Position numbers and translations under genes: made by a program | IMG/VR virus record: IMGVR_UViG_3300038436_000008 | Coordinates: 1-28,742 of that record | From: a virus | DNA: 28,742 nucleotides | Reading direction: 5' to 3' (one strand) | Notes under the pieces: generated by a model | What the model saw: the letters and a program-made list of their open reading frames with translations, nothing else | Databases searched by the model: none | Told to the model about the DNA's origin: nothing | Part shown: piece after piece, positions 9,696-28,742 of the stretch | Layout of the letters: each line of letters begins with the position of its first letter | Position numbering within the stretch: the first letter of the stretch is position 1

Positions 9696-11005
9696 GTGAT
9701 ATACTCACCACTTCCATTGTCGTTTCCTTGCTTAAACATCCAATGAGCATCCGGTTTCTTTTGCTCTTTGAGTTCTTCCCAATACTTCATAGCCTCATAG
9801 TTCAAGGCGTACCGTACAGCGTCTATGGTGTGATTGTTCTTATCGGGGAATTTCGCTTTAAAGTTGCCGTTTGCGTCTTTTTCAAGCTCGTAGTTGAGGA
9901 ATTCCCTCGCTGTCTCCGGGCATCGTTTGTCGTCGATGATAATGGCCTCTAAACTTTGCAGGAACTTAATGCCATACTCCACGCTATCCGGCCCCTTTTT
10001 CACAGGAACAACGTGTAATCCGTATTGGATTAACTCATGTATGCTTTTTGGCTCGGCGGAATCGGCTAATATTTGATCGTTGCCTTTGTTTTCCTCGGAT
10101 ATATGGTCATAGGCAGCGTAATTGCTTAACCCTACTTTGTAGAGTTCACGGAAGATATACAGCCGTTTCTTTTTGCGGTCATAGTGCATGACATTGTAAG
10201 CTAACGGATCAATCGCATAACCGAAGTCTAGCCCTCGGTGGATGTTCCAGTACTCTTTGATTTCCTCGTCTGTAATCTCCCTTATCTGTACATTGATGAA
10301 CACCTCGCCGCCTGTTCCTGTTTCTTCCCCCATGTACTCATGCTCATAAGCAAGGGGACTGACTTCTCTTAGGTGCTCGGCCTCGATGATGAACTGCTCA
10401 CCAAGCCATTCTCTCGGTACATCCAAATAAGTGCTGTGGTGGACTAAGCGATCCTCTCTTGTGAGCTTCACTTCAACGTTCACCCAATTATTTACTGACT
10501 TCGGCGGGTTGTAGCTGTAGAATACGGTGAATTTCTCTCCACCCCGCATGAGAGACTGGTTAATCATCCGTATCTCTTCCATGCCGTTGAATTCGTCTAC
10601 TTCCTCATACCAAATGAATTTGGAGTATCCCCTGCTGAATTTGATGGACTTGATCTTTTTCGGATCGTCCGCACCCCTAAATATAATCTTCTGCCCTGTT
10701 GGGAGATAGGTTAATGACAGGGGGCTGATACCTCTATGCCAGAATCGTTCCACGCCTAACTTTTCAATCGCCCAGGATAGCTGCTCATATACGGAGTCTT
10801 TTAACGTATCCTTAACCTTTCTAAGTGCCACGGCGTTCGCGTCCGGGTCTTTCATAATGCCAAGTATGACTTCGATTGCCACGAAGGAGGATTTTGTACT
10901 CCCCCGACCGCCTTTTAGAAAGTGGTGGCTGTATCTGTTTTCTTTTATCGCTTTATGGACTCCATAGAAGGATGGAGCAATAAGTTGAGATAGTTTAATC
11001 TTCAT
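9689..11005 (-). CDS. terL: Terminase large subunit (ATPase and nuclease)
   Basis: 438 aa from ATG at 11005; two ATGs nine and six bases upstream are alternatives, and none has a clear site, so coupling with TerS is likely. Walker A is GGRGSTKS (residues 32-39), Walker B FIWYEE (130-135), and the RNase-H-like nuclease begins GLDFGYAID (258-266), with a second acidic site at DSAEPKS and a third near NHTIDAVRYAL. This matches the Terminase_3/PBSX group. TerL cuts concatemeric DNA and drives it into the procapsid through the portal. Its first bases overlap the end of TerS. Confidence 0.92.
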   Translation of the reverse strand: MKIKLSQLIAPSFYGVHKAIKENRYSHHFLKGGRGSTKSSFVAIEVILGIMKDPDANAVALRKVKDTLKDSVYEQLSWAIEKLGVERFWHRGISPLSLTYLPTGQKIIFRGADDPKKIKSIKFSRGYSKFIWYEEVDEFNGMEEIRMINQSLMRGGEKFTVFYSYNPPKSVNNWVNVEVKLTREDRLVHHSTYLDVPREWLGEQFIIEAEHLREVSPLAYEHEYMGEETGTGGEVFINVQIREITDEEIKEYWNIHRGLDFGYAIDPLAYNVMHYDRKKKRLYIFRELYKVGLSNYAAYDHISEENKGNDQILADSAEPKSIHELIQYGLHVVPVKKGPDSVEYGIKFLQSLEAIIIDDKRCPETAREFLNYELEKDANGNFKAKFPDKNNHTIDAVRYALNYEAMKYWEELKEQKKPDAHWMFKQGNDNGSGEYITW

Positions 11006-11378
11006 CCACATCATCCACGATTGTTACACCTATATTCGCGTCAATCTGCTGCCGATCCACCCACAACATATATCTCTTGCCGAGTAGCTCAAGGGCTTTG
11101 TTTCTGTCTTGGGCGGAAACGAATTTTACACCAAGTTCCTTTGCTTTTCCCTTTGCAATTTTGGATAGTTCCTCAAGCACCTGTTCAGCCGACAAAATAG
11201 TACTTTTGTGCATTTGATTAAGATGCTCGTCTATATAATTACGAATGGTAGTATTTCGTAGTAACTTTGTAGTATTCCCTCTCGCATTATAACCTGCTCT
11301 CCTTGCTGCTTCCTCGGCATTCCCTGACTCGATGTAGTAGTCAGCGAAACGCTTCTGCTTCTCTGTCAGGTCAGCCAT
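10995..11378 (-). CDS. terS: Terminase small subunit
   Basis: 127 aa, ATG after AGGTGGTGAT. The N-terminal block LTEKQKRFADYYIESGNAEEAARRAGY (an HTH typical of Terminase_2) recognises the packaging site. It is followed by a helical oligomerisation region (EQVLEELSKIAKGK) and an acidic end (DDVDED) that probably contacts TerL. Immediately followed by TerL in an overlapping frame. Confidence 0.9.
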   Translation of the reverse strand: MADLTEKQKRFADYYIESGNAEEAARRAGYNARGNTTKLLRNTTIRNYIDEHLNQMHKSTILSAEQVLEELSKIAKGKAKELGVKFVSAQDRNKALELLGKRYMLWVDRQQIDANIGVTIVDDVDED

Positions 11379-11919: not shown

Positions 11920-11948
11920 TTTACAATGTAATGCAATCGTGTTATATT
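11920..11948 (+). promoter_or_regulatory. Sigma-A promoter of the plus-strand cassette
   Basis: TTTACA (11920-11925), a 17-base spacer and TATATT (11943-11948), 41 bases before the first plus-strand start. The nearest strong promoter match for genes that face against all surrounding transcription. Confidence 0.7.
11921..11931. promoter_or_regulatory. Palindromic operator candidate over the -35
   Basis: TTACA-A-TGTAA, a perfect 11-bp palindrome overlapping the -35 hexamer of the cassette promoter. A repressor, possibly the AlpA-like protein encoded in the cassette, could bind here. Confidence 0.4.
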
Positions 11949-11989
11949 TGTATCAACAAAGGGCGATGCCCACAAGGAGATGGATTAAG

Positions 11990-12415
11990 ATGAACATTTT
12001 TGAAATGTACGCGTTGTGCAAAAAAATCTACGAGGACAACGAGGACAATTACTGGTATATCGGATTGCGCTTTGAGGACAAAGACCGCGAGATCGGTGAA
12101 GAGTGCGAGTACAGCCGCCATAATCTTGACCGTGAAGATGAGAGAGATTTCCCAGTATTTGGCAGCGACGAGTACGACGACCTTGATCTACTAGACGGTA
12201 CTAGCGCCTATAATTTGATTGATCTTGATATTGGTCGGTACTGGCCTGGGTTGGGACGACCGCCACGCGATATTGATTTTGGTAAAGACTGCTCACGTGA
12301 GTTTTTGACTGATCACTGCTATATTATCGCCGGTAAACGGCAAGGGCAGCATGACAATCCTGACGACGGGGAGATCCTAATTAAAGACGCGATTGTTATC
12401 GCAAAGATCTTTTGA
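11990..12415 (+). CDS. Acidic protein of unknown function in reverse-oriented cassette
   Basis: 141 aa from ATG at 11990 with AAGGAG ten bases upstream; an open frame extends further up but would begin in the promoter. Strikingly acidic: runs such as EDNEDN, EDKDREIGEECE, DREDERDF and EYDDLDLLDG, with few basic residues. No known motif. High negative charge is a feature of DNA mimics that block host restriction or nucleases, but also of many ordinary proteins. First gene after the cassette promoter. Confidence 0.65.
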   Translation: MNIFEMYALCKKIYEDNEDNYWYIGLRFEDKDREIGEECEYSRHNLDREDERDFPVFGSDEYDDLDLLDGTSAYNLIDLDIGRYWPGLGRPPRDIDFGKDCSREFLTDHCYIIAGKRQGQHDNPDDGEILIKDAIVIAKIF

Positions 12416-12416
12416 T

Positions 12417-13076
12417 ATGCCAAAACGAATCGATCTAACCGGGCAACGTTATGGACGACTGACGGTGATAAAAGAAGCTGATCAAAATGGATATACCCGA
12501 CGATGGCTATGCCGGTGCGATTGTGGCAACGAAATGACAGTAACGATGTATAACCTACGTACCGGACACACTGTCTCATGCGGCTGCGTGCAAAAAGAAC
12601 GCGCCAGCCAAAACAACACAGATGACCTAACCGGATCTGTTTTTGGCCGCCTGAAAGTTTTGCGGAGATCTGATACAAAGCCCTATAAGTCGCGCCACGT
12701 TTTTTGGGAGTGCCAGTGTGATTGCGGCAATACAACGATAGCTGACGGCGTGCGTTTAAAGGACGGTACGACGCAATCTTGCGGCTGCTTGCGAACAGAT
12801 AAAGGTGTTGGGTTGCAAGAGTATAACAACGCAAATCTATATATTGACGGTGTGTTTACGCCGATCCTCAAAAGTAAGCTGCGAACAGATAGCTCAACCG
12901 GCGTTAAAGGCGTATCACGTAAACGCAAAAAAAGCGGTGCAATCGCTTATAGATCCAGTATCCGTATAAAAGGTAAAACCTATTATCTAGGCGAATACGC
13001 AACGATCGAAGAAGCCGCTGCCGCACGTAAACGCGGCGAAAAAAAGTACCACAAACCATACTTGGAGAGTGATTGA
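12417..13076 (+). CDS. Zinc-finger/AP2-type DNA-binding protein
   Basis: 219 aa from ATG at 12417, two bases after the previous stop. Contains two related modules: DLTGQRYGRLTVI with CRCDCGN and SCGC (residues 6-57), then DLTGSVFGRLKVL with CQCDCGN and SCGC (70-124). Each is a Cys4 unit of the sort seen in phage HNH and AP2 proteins. A C-terminal AP2 domain (about 160-212) has TGVKGVS, YRSSIRIKGKTYYLGEY and EEAAAARKRGEKKYH. No HNH catalytic motif is seen, so it is a DNA-binding protein rather than a clear nuclease. Such genes often spread as homing-like elements. Confidence 0.75.
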   Translation: MPKRIDLTGQRYGRLTVIKEADQNGYTRRWLCRCDCGNEMTVTMYNLRTGHTVSCGCVQKERASQNNTDDLTGSVFGRLKVLRRSDTKPYKSRHVFWECQCDCGNTTIADGVRLKDGTTQSCGCLRTDKGVGLQEYNNANLYIDGVFTPILKSKLRTDSSTGVKGVSRKRKKSGAIAYRSSIRIKGKTYYLGEYATIEEAAAARKRGEKKYHKPYLESD

Positions 13077-13077
13077 T

Positions 13078-13275
13078 ATGAGTGCACAGACGATCCCGCC
13101 CCTCGCCGGTCTTGACGAAGCATCTGAGATCCTCGGTTGGAGCAAGCAGCATATCCACAGCTATATCAGCCGGGGAGTGTTTCCACAGCCTATTCAACGT
13201 CTGGCGAGTGGGCCCATATGGACTAGAGAGCAGATTGAGCAGTATAAAAAGGAGCGTGAGAAACGTGAAGGCTGA
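13078..13275 (+). CDS. AlpA/excisionase-like winged-HTH protein
   Basis: 65 aa from ATG at 13078, eight bases after GGAGAG. Pattern LAGLDEASEILGWSKQHIHSY, then RGVFPQPIQRL and GPIWTREQIEQY, is that of the HTH_17/AlpA family: a MerR-like helix-turn-helix with wing. Such proteins repress promoters or direct excision. A repressor of the cassette promoter is a reasonable guess. Confidence 0.7.
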   Translation: MSAQTIPPLAGLDEASEILGWSKQHIHSYISRGVFPQPIQRLASGPIWTREQIEQYKKEREKREG

Positions 13276-13429
13276 GATTGTCCTCACAACTCGAGAATTT
13301 ACACAAGGTGTTATTGTTGAGGTATTGAAAATCGAACGTGACGGACCTTTTCCAAAAGCTCTTGTCAAGCACAAAGATAGAGAAATATGGGTATTGCTTA
13401 ACGAACTAAAGATAAGGGACGCTGACTAA
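13265..13429 (+). CDS. Hypothetical small protein, last gene of the cassette
   Basis: 54 aa from GTG at 13265 overlapping the end of the HTH gene, with AAGGAG ten bases upstream. Beta-rich (IVLTTREFTQGVIVEVLKIE, then ALVKHKDREIWVLL), possibly a small barrel. No family recognised. Its stop lies inside the stem of the terminator. Confidence 0.55.
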   Translation: MKAEIVLTTREFTQGVIVEVLKIERDGPFPKALVKHKDREIWVLLNELKIRDAD

Positions 13430-13441
13430 GCGTCTTTTTTT
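13418..13441 (+). terminator. Intrinsic terminator of the plus-strand cassette
   Basis: GACGCT-GACTA-AGCGTC stem-loop followed by seven T on the plus strand. On the minus strand the stem is preceded by A and followed by CCC, so it should stop plus-strand transcripts only. Confidence 0.75.
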
Positions 13442-13610: not shown

Positions 13611-14387
13611 TCATATCTCAACTCGGATATCTTTTATGACACTTTTATTTCGTGTGTACTGACCGCCTAGATAGACTTTCGGGAATCCTTTCTTGCCAGG
13701 CGGAAGCCCTGCCGCTTCTGCATAACTTCCTTCATAAGCCAGCGAATGCCCGGTGTTGACGAAATATTGTACTTGCTCGTTGATCTTGTTGTTTCGCGCA
13801 TCCGGAATATACATGATGCGGTTGTGTGCGTGCTGTTTATGTGTGTGACCCATAAGATAGACATCACAGAGCACAGTGTCCGTTTGGCTTTCGAGTTTAT
13901 TTACGGAAGATCCGCTTTTTCTACCTCCACCAGATCCGTGCCAAACGCTCACGTTATACGCCCGATGATTCCATGCGTACTTTATGATGCCTTGATACAT
14001 CATATATTTGTCGGGAATCCCTAGCATTTCAGCAAGCAGTTTGTTAAGTAGGATTCCTGCCCGTTGATAAACGCGCAACTCATGATTTCCTTCTATCACC
14101 CCATCAATGATGTCGCGGAATTCGTAAAATAGTCCCTTTGCGGCGTACAAGTGATTCATGATGATGTCCTCTTGCTCTGCCCACCCTGCACCAACGCTGT
14201 CTTTGAGTGCTGTTTCTAATATGTCTCCCATCAGGATAATGCGTGCGTTCTCTTTGCTCTTGATCCATTCCAGGTGCTTCTGGAGTGACTTTTTATCAAA
14301 GTGTGGAGATCCGATATGTATATCTCCGATGGGACAAAGGATAATCTCATCATGATTCCCGTTATAGCTCGATGGGATATATTTCAT
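13611..14387 (-). CDS. Calcineurin-like metallophosphoesterase
   Basis: 258 aa from ATG at 14387 after AGGTGGTGAC. All metal-binding motifs of the family are present: GDIH (21-24), GDILE (54-58), GNHE (100-103), a single His in WHGSGGG (150) and GHTH (180-183). The order fits the Mre11/SbcD-like fold, which hydrolyses phosphodiester bonds, though phage members lack a tested substrate. No ATPase partner (SbcC) is encoded nearby, so a stand-alone nuclease or nucleotide phosphatase is more likely than an Mre11-Rad50 complex. Confidence 0.82.
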   Translation of the reverse strand: MKYIPSSYNGNHDEIILCPIGDIHIGSPHFDKKSLQKHLEWIKSKENARIILMGDILETALKDSVGAGWAEQEDIIMNHLYAAKGLFYEFRDIIDGVIEGNHELRVYQRAGILLNKLLAEMLGIPDKYMMYQGIIKYAWNHRAYNVSVWHGSGGGRKSGSSVNKLESQTDTVLCDVYLMGHTHKQHAHNRIMYIPDARNNKINEQVQYFVNTGHSLAYEGSYAEAAGLPPGKKGFPKVYLGGQYTRNKSVIKDIRVEI

Positions 14388-14606: not shown

Positions 14607-14624
14607 ATACTCACCTTCTTATGG
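14603..14624 (-). repeat. Direct repeat copy 2 (22 bp, one mismatch to 15074-15095)
   Basis: Matches 15074-15095 in 21 of 22 bases. It carries the stop of the Mom-like gene and the ribosome site and start of the 30-aa gene. Confidence 0.8.
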
Positions 14625-15077
14625 TGTTCTCGCCCATCTCCACTTTCCTGAGATGTCGATGTTCTTTCTATTTTCTCTATCCTTTCCACTCCACTTCCCG
14701 CCGTCTGTCTTTCCAATTCGAAACCAGTTGTCAGCTGCGTAAATTGTTCCCTCGTGGCCTTGCCCGGTACTAGAATACGCAAGTAATCCCTTTACTTCTG
14801 GATAGTGCTTTCGAATGTGTTTTCGGGACATCGCCAGTGCTTTACTCTCTGCATATGGCTCCGTATCGTCAACAAAAAACATTCTTGTGAGTTCTAATAT
14901 TCCATTTTGGTCATAATGCCTTGATGTAGGTCTACCCCACATCATAGCGCCGATCCGTTCGCCGTGATCGTCAAGTACCCATAATCTTACCTTTGCTCCA
15001 GCTGGCGTCGACCGCAGATAATGTCGTTCTGCAATCCATACATCTAATTCCGTACTACGGCATACCTCAAGTCGCAT
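14619..15077 (-). CDS. GNAT-fold protein resembling phage Mu Mom (DNA adenine modification)
   Basis: 152 aa, ATG after AAGAAGGTGAGGAT. Pattern ILELTRMFFVDD (60-71), AYAESKA-like helix start (YAESKALAMSRKHIRKHYP), and YSSTGQGHEGTIYAADNWFRIG (101-122) match phage GNAT proteins of the Mom group, where the QGHxGTIYxAxNW box is a family signature. Mu Mom converts adenine in DNA to a carbamoylmethylated form and blocks restriction. Activity here is inferred from family likeness. The gene is bracketed by 22-bp repeats of its own start region, which suggests it is a mobile accessory. Confidence 0.65.
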   Translation of the reverse strand: MRLEVCRSTELDVWIAERHYLRSTPAGAKVRLWVLDDHGERIGAMMWGRPTSRHYDQNGILELTRMFFVDDTEPYAESKALAMSRKHIRKHYPEVKGLLAYSSTGQGHEGTIYAADNWFRIGKTDGGKWSGKDRENRKNIDISGKWRWARTP

Positions 15078-19111: not shown

Positions 19112-19582
19112 TTAAGATGGGATTTCATTGAGCCTTGCGTATTCACCGTGCAATTCAATCGCAGCTTTGTTATAAGCTTTTGCTGCATCGACCGGATCAT
19201 CGAAACGACCTAGATTTTTCTGCTTACCATTAGCTTGAATAGAAGCAATGTATTTACACCTTGTTTTATCCCAACAGACTCCTTTGAAGCCTGTTTTATT
19301 GTTAGATTGTTTTGCGCGGTTAAAGTAATTTTGTGCAGGTTTTACGATTCTTAGATTTTCGATCCTGTTGTCTAATTTATTTCCATTGATGTGATCTACT
19401 TCGTATCCGTCAGGTGCCATGCAAATATATCGGTGCATGTAGACAATTTTCCTGTTATTTCGCCCACCTATATCCCTAGCTGCATATTCACCAGTGAAAT
19501 ACCAAGACCACTGCTTTAGGATTTCATGCCACTTATCATCCACCATTACTTCATGGCCTTTTGTTAGAAAGATTGTTTTCAT
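19112..19582 (-). CDS. HNH endonuclease with AP2 domain (homing-type)
   Basis: 156 aa; its ATG overlaps the methyltransferase stop. HNH part contains MHRYIC and DHINGNKLDNRIENLR (about 49-78, His 64 and Asn residues), and the AP2-like DNA-binding domain is residues 98-150 (TGFKGVCWDKTR, then ASIQANGKQKNLGRFD). Enzymes of this shape nick at conserved phage sites and spread as free-standing homing genes. It directly follows the cytosine methyltransferase, which may protect or be protected by it. Confidence 0.85.
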   Translation of the reverse strand: MKTIFLTKGHEVMVDDKWHEILKQWSWYFTGEYAARDIGGRNNRKIVYMHRYICMAPDGYEVDHINGNKLDNRIENLRIVKPAQNYFNRAKQSNNKTGFKGVCWDKTRCKYIASIQANGKQKNLGRFDDPVDAAKAYNKAAIELHGEYARLNEIPS

Positions 19583-20322
19583 TTTCTACTCTCCTTTTCA
19601 ATGTTATAAATAGCTTTCAATATTGGGTAACATTGTTGTGGTACTACGGCGTTTCCGAGGGCGTGAGTTCTGTCCACCCTGTTGGGAATCCGAGTATTTT
19701 CTCTACCAAAATCGGCGGCGGATATGTGAGTCCATGGACCTGGCGACAGTAATCTCGAAAGTTGTTCCGCGGACCACGACCTACTCGCTCTGCCGCTTCC
19801 GTTGTCCTGCCCCCCCTGTAATCGCTCGCTGTAGGTGTGGGCAACAATAAATATTCTTCTTCGCTCGATGTCGGCATCGATGGCACAAGCTGGTATATCG
19901 AATACAACCGCTTTGTACCCGATACTCTCCAAGTCAGATAGCGCTTGGTCGAGACCCAGTGTGATGAACCCAACAACATTTTCTCCAAGTACCCAAGTGG
20001 GCCTGAGTTGATTGATAATTCTAAGCATCTCTGGCCAGAGATAGCGGTCATCATCTTCGCCTTTTCGCTCCCCGGCAAGACTGAAAGGTTGACAAGGGAA
20101 TCCGCCTGAAATAAGGTCAACTGTTGATAGTCCTGTTCGCTCTCGGAAGCTGTCTGTTGTAACATCCCTTATATCCCTCCATCTCGGCACGTTCGGCCAG
20201 TGTTTTTCGAGTATCTTTGTCGGATAATCCGCCATTTCGACTTGACCAACCGTTGTGAATCCTGCCCACTCGGCTGCCAAATCAATACCACCCACGCCGG
20301 TGAAAAGTGAAAAGTGATTCAC
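19579..20322 (-). CDS. DNA C5-cytosine methyltransferase, short form
   Basis: 247 aa from GTG at 20322, overlapping the upstream stop (GTGA). Motif I FTGVGGIDLA (7-16), IV GGFPCQPFSLAG (73-84, catalytic Cys 77), VI ENV (114-116), VIII ERRRIF (153-158), X GNAV (223-226). The target-recognition segment between VIII and X is only about 45 residues, far smaller than in most such enzymes, so a simple short target or relaxed specificity is likely. No cognate restriction enzyme is visible, so it should protect phage DNA from host restriction. Confidence 0.9.
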   Translation of the reverse strand: MNHFSLFTGVGGIDLAAEWAGFTTVGQVEMADYPTKILEKHWPNVPRWRDIRDVTTDSFRERTGLSTVDLISGGFPCQPFSLAGERKGEDDDRYLWPEMLRIINQLRPTWVLGENVVGFITLGLDQALSDLESIGYKAVVFDIPACAIDADIERRRIFIVAHTYSERLQGGQDNGSGRASRSWSAEQLSRLLSPGPWTHISAADFGRENTRIPNRVDRTHALGNAVVPQQCYPILKAIYNIEKESRK

Positions 20323-20588
20323 GATCCCAACACCCCACCTTCCCGCTTCCTCAATCTCCCATGCCTCGCCAACCAAATGATCAACACCGTTATCTCATCC
20401 TGGTCACGCTTGATTTCCTCCGCTATGTCCGCGATATGCTTGCCGTCGTTCCATAGCGCCTGAACGTTGCGGATCTCCTTCTTAGTCCACACGAACGAGA
20501 AGTCATCTTCCTCAAAGATCAAGACTCTCTCATTTCGCGGCTCCCGTGTCATGTAGACGGCTCCGATGTCACTCTTGGCTACTTTCAC
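20319..20588 (-). CDS. Small protein with putative HTH
   Basis: 89 aa from GTG at 20588 after AGGTGGTGAC. Two parts: a beta-rich start (VYMTREPRNERVLIFEEDDF) and a helical end KEIRNVQALWNDGKHIADIA, EEIKRDQDEITVLIIWLARHGRL, that resembles sigma-factor or resolvase HTH. Function unknown. Coupled to the methyltransferase through a GTGA overlap. Confidence 0.55.
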   Translation of the reverse strand: MKVAKSDIGAVYMTREPRNERVLIFEEDDFSFVWTKKEIRNVQALWNDGKHIADIAEEIKRDQDEITVLIIWLARHGRLRKREGGVLGS

Positions 20589-28156: not shown

Positions 28157-28353
28157 GCTATCCGCCTCTGTGCGCCGAGTTTCTTTTCGGCAAATTCTTC
28201 AAAGCAATAACCATGTACCATTTCACCATCTTCGGTTTCAAGGTAAATTTCCTCTTCGTAGATGTGGTCTGTGCAATGATCGCAATAACCGATCGTTTCA
28301 GGTTCCACCCGATCAGGTGGTTCAAGCCATTTTCTGTGACCTGGGATATTCAC
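28153..28353 (-). CDS. Small protein with putative zinc site
   Basis: 66 aa from GTG at 28353, overlapping the pentapeptide gene's stop. CDHC (24-27) and a later HGYCFEEF (47-54) offer Cys and His ligands for one metal. Acidic centre ([13 protein letters not shown]). Function unknown. Confidence 0.6.
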
Positions 28354-28742
28354 ACTGTTTCCTCCCCCACTGGTTGTTTACTTTCCGCCGTCACATCTTT
28401 GAAAAAGCGAATCGCCGCATCATATTGCTTCCGATACTTACCGTCTGGATAGACCAGTTCGACACGCTCTTTAAACTGATTAAGAGTGCCCTTCCAACAA
28501 CCACAGAATATTGTGTCTGTGTCTACGTGATAGACGGTTTTGCTGTTTCTGCTTCCAATGTTGTCGACGGAAAGGAATGTTTGCCCATAGATTCGTGTTG
28601 TATGGGCACCGCTCAGGTCGGCACCGCCCAGGTTGGCATCGCCCAGGTTGGCACCGCTCAGGTTGGCATAGCTCAGGTTGGCATAGCTCAGGTTGGCATC
28701 GCGCAGGTCGGCACCGCTCAGGTTGGCATCGCGCAGGTCGGC
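28350..28742 (-). CDS. Pentapeptide-repeat protein (N-terminus outside window)
   Basis: 130 codons visible. The first 45 residues are nine A(D/N)LXX units (28742-28608), forming a right-handed quadrilateral beta-helix. The remainder is a non-repeat domain with [17 protein letters not shown] and [13 protein letters not shown]. In bacteria such repeats include DNA-mimic gyrase inhibitors (Qnr, MfpA), but many phage members end in this kind of conserved tail and have no known activity. The DNA repeats are nearly identical, suggesting recent expansion. Confidence 0.8.

What the first reader, a model, noticed from the sequence alone, without database searches (positions are those of the whole stretch)
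11920..13441. Self-contained reverse cassette (moron) inside the late region
Four plus-strand genes with own promoter (TTTACA-17-TATATT), palindrome over the -35 and own terminator (13418-13441) face opposite to everything else. Contents: an acidic protein, a zinc-finger/AP2 protein, an AlpA-like HTH protein and a small protein. The setup is that of a lysogenically expressed accessory locus, possibly defence or anti-defence.
Basis: partly seen in the sequence, partly recalled or inferred. Interest (0 to 1): 0.75.

Follow-up and report, generated by a model that had tools for sequence, protein, structure and literature searches.

The report
Reverse accessory gene cassette in phage
A phage from the Bacillus/Paenibacillus group carries a four-gene block with its own switch, running against the rest of the genome; its main gene belongs to an undescribed family that recurs with the same partners in about two dozen other phages, four times beside likely CRISPR-disarming enzymes, so it may help phages evade bacterial defences.

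Summary
The cassette is real: four overlapping or closely spaced plus-strand genes, a promoter at 11920-11948 and a strong terminator at 13414-13438, the only clear plus-strand genes of the window, between the early genes and the terminase.

The acidic protein founds an undescribed family (no match in Pfam, PHROGs, NCBIfam, PADLOC or PDB). I found it in 21 further IMG/VR viral contigs and in Paenibacillus phages Halcyone, Heath and Scottie, but not in their relatives Unity, Tripp, Ash, Ley and C7Cdelta. Zinc/AP2 genes accompany it in 12 of 23 other loci against 2 of 79 control loci; small HTH and Gp111 genes also recur. A distant acidic family uses the same partners. Four of 22 other records carry a ring-nuclease-like gene within about 2.5 kb; 0 of 40 controls do.

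Best reading: a modular, self-regulated accessory ("moron") cassette built like an acr-aca operon, whose acidic protein is probably an anti-defence factor. Accessory status is well supported; the anti-defence function is inferred and untested.

The parts
11920..11948 (+). sigma-A type promoter TTTACA-17-TATATT with TG before the -10
   Evidence: consensus scan, 10 of 12; an identical TTTACA-17-TATATT lies before the distant homologue in L129
11920..11935 (+). candidate operator half-site for the cassette's HTH protein
   Evidence: TTTACAATGTAATGCA matches, with 2 mismatches, TTGACWWTRTMATACA derived from the promoter repeats of L057 and L115, whose HTH proteins are 67% and 56% identical to the one here; only one other site in the window is as good
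11990..12415 (+). acidic protein, 141 aa (SRHN-x-DREDER family), probable effector
   Evidence: homologues at 39-68% identity in IMG/VR contigs and 50% in Paenibacillus phages Halcyone/Heath/Scottie; AF2 model pLDDT 80, pTM 0.75
12417..13076 (+). zinc (two CxCxCG...SCGC units) plus AP2 protein, 219 aa, basic; candidate DNA-binding or mobility component
   Evidence: PHROG 374 at 5e-51, AP2 part sub-threshold in Pfam; family in 12 of 23 other acidic-gene loci against 2 of 79 control loci
13078..13275 (+). small HTH protein, 65 aa (excisionase/AlpA-type), candidate autorepressor
   Evidence: PHROG 66 at 5e-7; 67% identical homologue next to a distant acidic homologue in L057
13265..13429 (+). 54-aa protein, GTG start, no homologue found
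   Evidence: ORF with AGGAG upstream, overlapping the HTH gene; no match in Pfam, PHROGs, NCBIfam, PADLOC or phage records
13414..13438 (+). intrinsic terminator of the cassette
   Evidence: z = -4.4 against 200 shuffles
10995..11378 (-). terminase small subunit, left flanking phage gene with an assigned function
   Evidence: PHROG 51, 1.5e-36
13611..14387 (-). metallophosphoesterase, right flanking phage gene with an assigned function
   Evidence: PHROG 7339, 5e-43

Best explanation
A modular, autonomously transcribed accessory (moron) cassette. Its own promoter drives the acidic protein (the effector), the zinc/AP2 protein, the small HTH protein and a 54-aa protein as one operon that ends at its own terminator. 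The HTH protein binds half-sites in the promoter and represses the operon once it accumulates, giving a burst of effector on infection and a low level in a lysogen. The acidic protein most likely neutralises a host defence, with cyclic-nucleotide (type III CRISPR-like) immunity the first candidate. The zinc/AP2 gene is a DNA-binding or formerly mobile component that travels with such cassettes. Shown: operon anatomy, recurrence, partner genes, presence or absence among relatives, ring-nuclease neighbours. Inferred: autorepression, expression in lysogens, the anti-defence function and its target.
For: Operon anatomy and terminator. An undescribed acidic family with 21 invariant columns over 19 members, in 21 other IMG/VR contigs and in Halcyone, Heath and Scottie but not in Unity, Tripp, Ash, Ley or C7Cdelta. 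Co-occurrence with zinc/AP2 (12 of 23 against 2 of 79, p = 7e-8), Gp111 (9 against 0) and small HTH genes. A distantly related acidic family (hhalign probability 92.6, E 4.5e-7) uses the same partners (L129, L130, L131) and occurs as acidic gene + HTH on the strand opposite to the terminase genes in L057 and L132. Promoter repeats in L057 and L115, where the HTH is closest, beat all shuffles, and their half-site matches the window's -35. Ring-nuclease-like genes (Crn4/Unk01 in G003 and Scottie, Csx16-like in G002 and G008) lie 0.5-2.5 kb from the acidic gene in 4 records, against 0 of 40 controls and, in published surveys, 11 Crn4 in 28,137 and 2 Csx16 in 28,114 phage genomes (PMC12830947, PMC12409355). 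Aca proteins repress through inverted repeats within acr promoters (PMC9410906).
Against: No experiment and no similarity to a known anti-CRISPR family in the libraries at hand. The window itself has no ring nuclease. None was found in the nine records with the distant acidic family. The Csx16-like matches are weak (E about 1e-6 to 1e-8). The control records are TerL relatives, not matched for lysogeny region or host. The palindrome of the window is not significant on its own. Nineteen members share a near-invariant DREDER loop, which is unusual for fast-evolving inhibitors and would also fit an enzyme; moreover that motif was used to find them. Phage HTH proteins have many roles.
Confidence: 0.5

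Rival explanations
1. The cassette is expressed in the lysogen to protect the host against other phages (superinfection exclusion or a small defence system) rather than to disarm the host.
For: Own promoter; homologue near the CI-like repressor in Halcyone; integrase within about 2.5 kb in G004, G012 and G014; HTH hit to a MADS defence regulator (mad1, 2.4e-5).
Against: No match to a known defence effector; the neighbours with assignable function are ring nucleases, which switch defence off; in L122/L123 the domain is encoded among head genes, which suits delivery with the virion rather than expression in a lysogen.
Confidence: 0.2
2. The acidic protein is an enzyme that modifies a host protein or nucleotide (for example a derived ADP-ribosyltransferase-like domain), used for host takeover as T4 Alt/Mod are.
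For: Invariant R...S...E pattern on predicted strands and a near-invariant, low-confidence loop; weak structural matches to a viral protein (E 5e-3, probability 1.0) and to several DUF7666 proteins; in L122/L123 the domain sits in the head operon behind a Gly-rich leader.
Against: No significant structural match in the PDB for two models, and the one NAD-related hit is at noise level; no Pfam, PHROG or PDB sequence match.
Confidence: 0.13
3. The HTH protein is an excisionase or lysogeny regulator and the cassette is part of the lysis-lysogeny circuit, not a weapon.
For: Best PHROG of the HTH is 'excisionase and transcriptional regulator'; many homologous loci lie in lysogeny modules.
Against: The HTH type varies between cassettes while the acidic gene stays; in the window, L125, L126 and L132 it lies beside terminase genes, not beside an integrase.
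Confidence: 0.1
4. The cassette is a toxin-antitoxin pair or a passenger carried by a homing-type zinc/AP2 element, without a defence role.
For: A 28% identical HTH in Mycobacterium prophi91-4 is annotated as antitoxin beside a toxin; zinc/AP2 genes are annotated as HNH endonucleases.
Against: The acidic gene also occurs without a zinc/AP2 gene (L019, L020, L024, L031) and fused behind a leader in a virion operon; no HNH domain was detected in this zinc/AP2 protein by Pfam.
Confidence: 0.07

Closest known systems
acr-aca operons of phages and prophages
   Same: Short operon of small genes with its own promoter, an HTH gene in the downstream half, repeats in the core promoter in the closest relatives, mobile between phages, near other anti-CRISPR candidates
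   Different: No known Acr or Aca sequence recognised; a zinc/AP2 gene stands between effector and HTH; the acidic protein is strongly conserved at one motif; function untested
Moron / lysogenic accessory loci (PMC7067206 describes such loci as often highly expressed in lysogens)
   Same: Own promoter and terminator, orientation against neighbours, patchy distribution
   Different: GC content equals the host phage; expression in lysogens not shown
Phage-encoded ring nucleases Crn4 (Unk01) and Csx16
   Same: Lie 0.5-2.5 kb from homologues of the acidic gene in four phage records
   Different: Not homologous to the acidic protein; absent from the window
Phage zinc/AP2 'HNH endonuclease' proteins (PHROG 374 and related)
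   Same: The second gene is a member by sequence
   Different: No HNH domain detected in this copy
DUF7666 phage and giant-virus proteins
   Same: Weak similarity of the predicted fold
   Different: No sequence match; not supported by the PDB search

Membership tests
acr-aca operon | encodes a protein shown to inhibit, or homologous to an inhibitor of, CRISPR-Cas | not tested
   no Acr library at hand; PADLOC, Pfam, PHROGs and NCBIfam give no match for the acidic protein
acr-aca operon | small HTH gene in the same operon | tested here: met
   13078-13275, PHROG 66 at 5e-7
acr-aca operon | inverted repeat within the core promoter | tested here: inconclusive
   weak repeat in the window, 178 of 200 shuffles equal it; strong repeats in L057 and L115 (0 of 200) and a shared half-site at the window's -35
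acr-aca operon | HTH protein represses the operon | not testable with these tools
   needs a reporter assay
phage moron | own promoter and terminator, independent of neighbouring operons | tested here: met
   (predicted signals)
phage moron | present in some and absent from other closely related phages | tested here: met
   acidic homologue in Halcyone, Heath, Scottie; no match in Unity, Tripp, Ash, Ley, C7Cdelta. For the window's own lineage, none of 79 TerL-relative loci holds the acidic gene, and L057 holds a distant version
phage moron | expressed in the lysogen | not testable with these tools
   needs RNA data
AlpA/excisionase-type HTH | passes the curated family cut-off | tested here: not met
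   Pfam HTH_17 18.9 of 27 bits, AlpA 12.5 of 21 bits; PHROG support only
AP2 domain | passes the curated family cut-off | tested here: not met
   14.7 of 33.3 bits, although PHROG AP2/HNH profiles match strongly
ADP-ribosyltransferase fold | structural match to solved ART enzymes | tested here: not met
   no significant PDB match for two models

The most novel reading that the evidence does not exclude
The acidic SRHN-x-DREDER proteins and their distant relatives are a new, widespread class of phage anti-defence proteins with an undescribed fold, carried in interchangeable cassettes with an Aca-like repressor and acting on the same signalling immunity as the neighbouring ring nucleases.
Probability: 0.25. 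Interest if true: 0.75.

Novelty: new variant of a known kind. Interest (0 to 1): 0.55.

Why it matters
If the acidic family is anti-defence, it adds a new inhibitor family in phages of the Bacillus/Paenibacillus group and a new marker (acidic gene + zinc/AP2 + HTH) for finding further ones. Even if not, it defines a recurrent modular accessory cassette with an undescribed conserved protein that can be tested directly with four small genes.

Tried and rejected
(1) Back-translated searches with the single acidic protein or a two-sequence alignment found nothing in viral or genome contigs, because the chosen peptides were not the conserved ones; DNA patterns for HNxDREDER found 21 contigs. (2) Plasmids hold no homologue. 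(3) The window's palindrome as an operator: not significant alone. (4) PDB sequence and fold searches: nothing. (5) A DUF7666 (PF24703) link suggested by the viral fold library: no member in the 44 phage records searched and no literature; kept only as a hint. (6) GC content as a mark of foreign origin: no difference. (7) Metallophosphoesterase as a bait for close relatives of the window: only distant matches. (8) The 54-aa protein: no homologue; a different 53-aa family fills a similar place in other cassettes. (9) Kin genomes cannot be drawn for a virus record.

Full report
What is there. The window is a 28.7-kb fragment of a viral contig. Genes with an assignable function lie on the minus strand: replication and recombination genes (Erf, DnaD, DnaB), a C5 methyltransferase, a Mom-like protein and a metallophosphoesterase on the right; terminase, portal, capsid and tail genes on the left. 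Between the metallophosphoesterase and the small terminase gene, four genes run the other way: an acidic protein of 141 aa (pI 4.3), a basic zinc/AP2 protein of 219 aa, a 65-aa HTH protein and a 54-aa protein, with overlapping or near-abutting ends. A promoter with 10 of 12 consensus bases ends 41 bp before the first gene, and a terminator with z = -4.4 closes the block. The palindrome over the -35 is no better than chance: 178 of 200 shuffles contain an equal one.

The acidic protein. It has no match in Pfam, PHROGs, NCBIfam, PADLOC or PDB. tblastn found it at 50% identity in Paenibacillus phages Halcyone, Heath and Scottie. The shared motif, back-translated to DNA, found 21 IMG/VR contigs, and each encodes a homologue. 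Over 19 members 21 columns are invariant, most in the stretch S-x-HN-x-DREDER; since that motif was the bait, its invariance is partly built in. AlphaFold2 gives a compact alpha/beta model (pLDDT 80-83, pTM 0.75) without a PDB match. In the viral library one uncharacterised phage protein matches at E 5e-3 and several DUF7666 proteins match weakly.

Accessory nature. Among the related Halcyone-cluster phages, Halcyone, Heath and Scottie have the gene, while Unity, Tripp, Ash, Ley and C7Cdelta do not (a region missing from Unity is noted in PMC6070908). In Halcyone it lies on the same strand as a CI-like repressor gene, a short way downstream of it. Thirteen of 21 records with the family carry an integrase or serine recombinase. 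In L125 and L126 the gene lies next to, and divergent from, a small-terminase-like gene, as in the window. None of 79 loci around related large terminases carries the family.

The cassette recurs. Profile searches over 23 other loci found zinc/AP2 genes in 12 (2 of 79 control loci, p = 7e-8), Gp111 genes (PF07410) in 9 (0 of 79), a small HTH family in 5 and a 53-aa family in 6. L124, for example, has acidic, Gp111, zinc/AP2, HTH and 53-aa genes in a row. In L057, a phage with a related large terminase (70% identity over the matched segment), a reverse two-gene cassette lies upstream of the terminase genes: an HTH gene 67% identical to the one here and a 128-aa acidic protein. That protein belongs to a second family, distantly related to the first (hhalign probability 92.6, E 4.5e-7). 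The second family also stands beside zinc/AP2, Gp111 and HTH genes (L129, L130, L131) and as acidic gene + HTH opposite to the terminase gene in L132. The acidic protein is therefore an exchangeable part of a modular cassette.

Regulation. L057 and L115 (Brevibacillus phage MRSA107), the two loci with the closest HTH proteins, have long inverted repeats over the core promoter that no shuffle equals. The half-site they share, TTGACWWTRTMATACA, matches the window at 11920-11935 with two mismatches, exactly at the -35 and on the right strand; only one other site in the window is as good. Part of this agreement is the -35 element itself. Autorepression is thus likely but not shown. Aca proteins act in this way (PMC9410906).

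Company. In four of the other records a ring-nuclease-like gene lies within about 2.5 kb of the acidic gene: Crn4/Unk01 in G003 (58.9-kb contig) and in Scottie, and a Csx16-like domain in G002 and G008. Crn4 and Csx16 degrade the cyclic oligoadenylates of type III CRISPR; they are rare in phages (11 of 28,137 and 2 of 28,114 genomes), and phage copies of Crn4 are thought to act as anti-CRISPRs (PMC12830947, PMC12409355). None of 40 control records has either, and none of the nine records with the distant acidic family does. In L122 and L123 the acidic domain is encoded between a protease-like and a capsid-like gene, behind a Gly-rich leader, which would suit entry with the virion; those gene names were assigned by eye.

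Conclusion. The moron reading is well supported; an anti-defence function is the best guess (about one in two), with lysogen-expressed defence, a host-modifying enzyme and lysogeny regulation as rivals. Family membership in 'acr-aca' is not claimed: the defining inhibitor activity is untested.

Noticed in passing
window 14619-15077 (-): Mom-like DNA modification protein (PF25680, 3e-20), near the cassette's right flank; with the C5 methyltransferase at 19579-20376 it suggests further anti-restriction functions.
   Followed up: no
window 19115-19585 (-): A second, weaker zinc/AP2-type match (2e-8) beside the methyltransferase gene.
   Followed up: no
window 28350-28742 (-): Pentapeptide-repeat protein cut by the right end of the window (PF00805, 2e-16).
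   Followed up: no
L122:7366-7935, L123:2130-2699: The acidic family's domain encoded inside a head-gene operon behind a GGAGSGHFGHAGRPG leader: a possible virion-delivered version.
   Followed up: partly
L025:3082-3624, L019:7913-8839: Phage proteins with a Csx16-like stretch inside a longer protein: candidate phage ring nucleases.
   Followed up: partly
L003:5503-6219 (Paenibacillus phage Scottie), L020:8152-8505: Crn4/Unk01 homologues, the Scottie one with an N-terminal extension, annotated only as hypothetical protein.
   Followed up: partly
L115:3561-4007: HTH of the cassette's type joined to a small unknown N-terminal region, with a 13-bp perfect inverted repeat over the promoter.
   Followed up: partly
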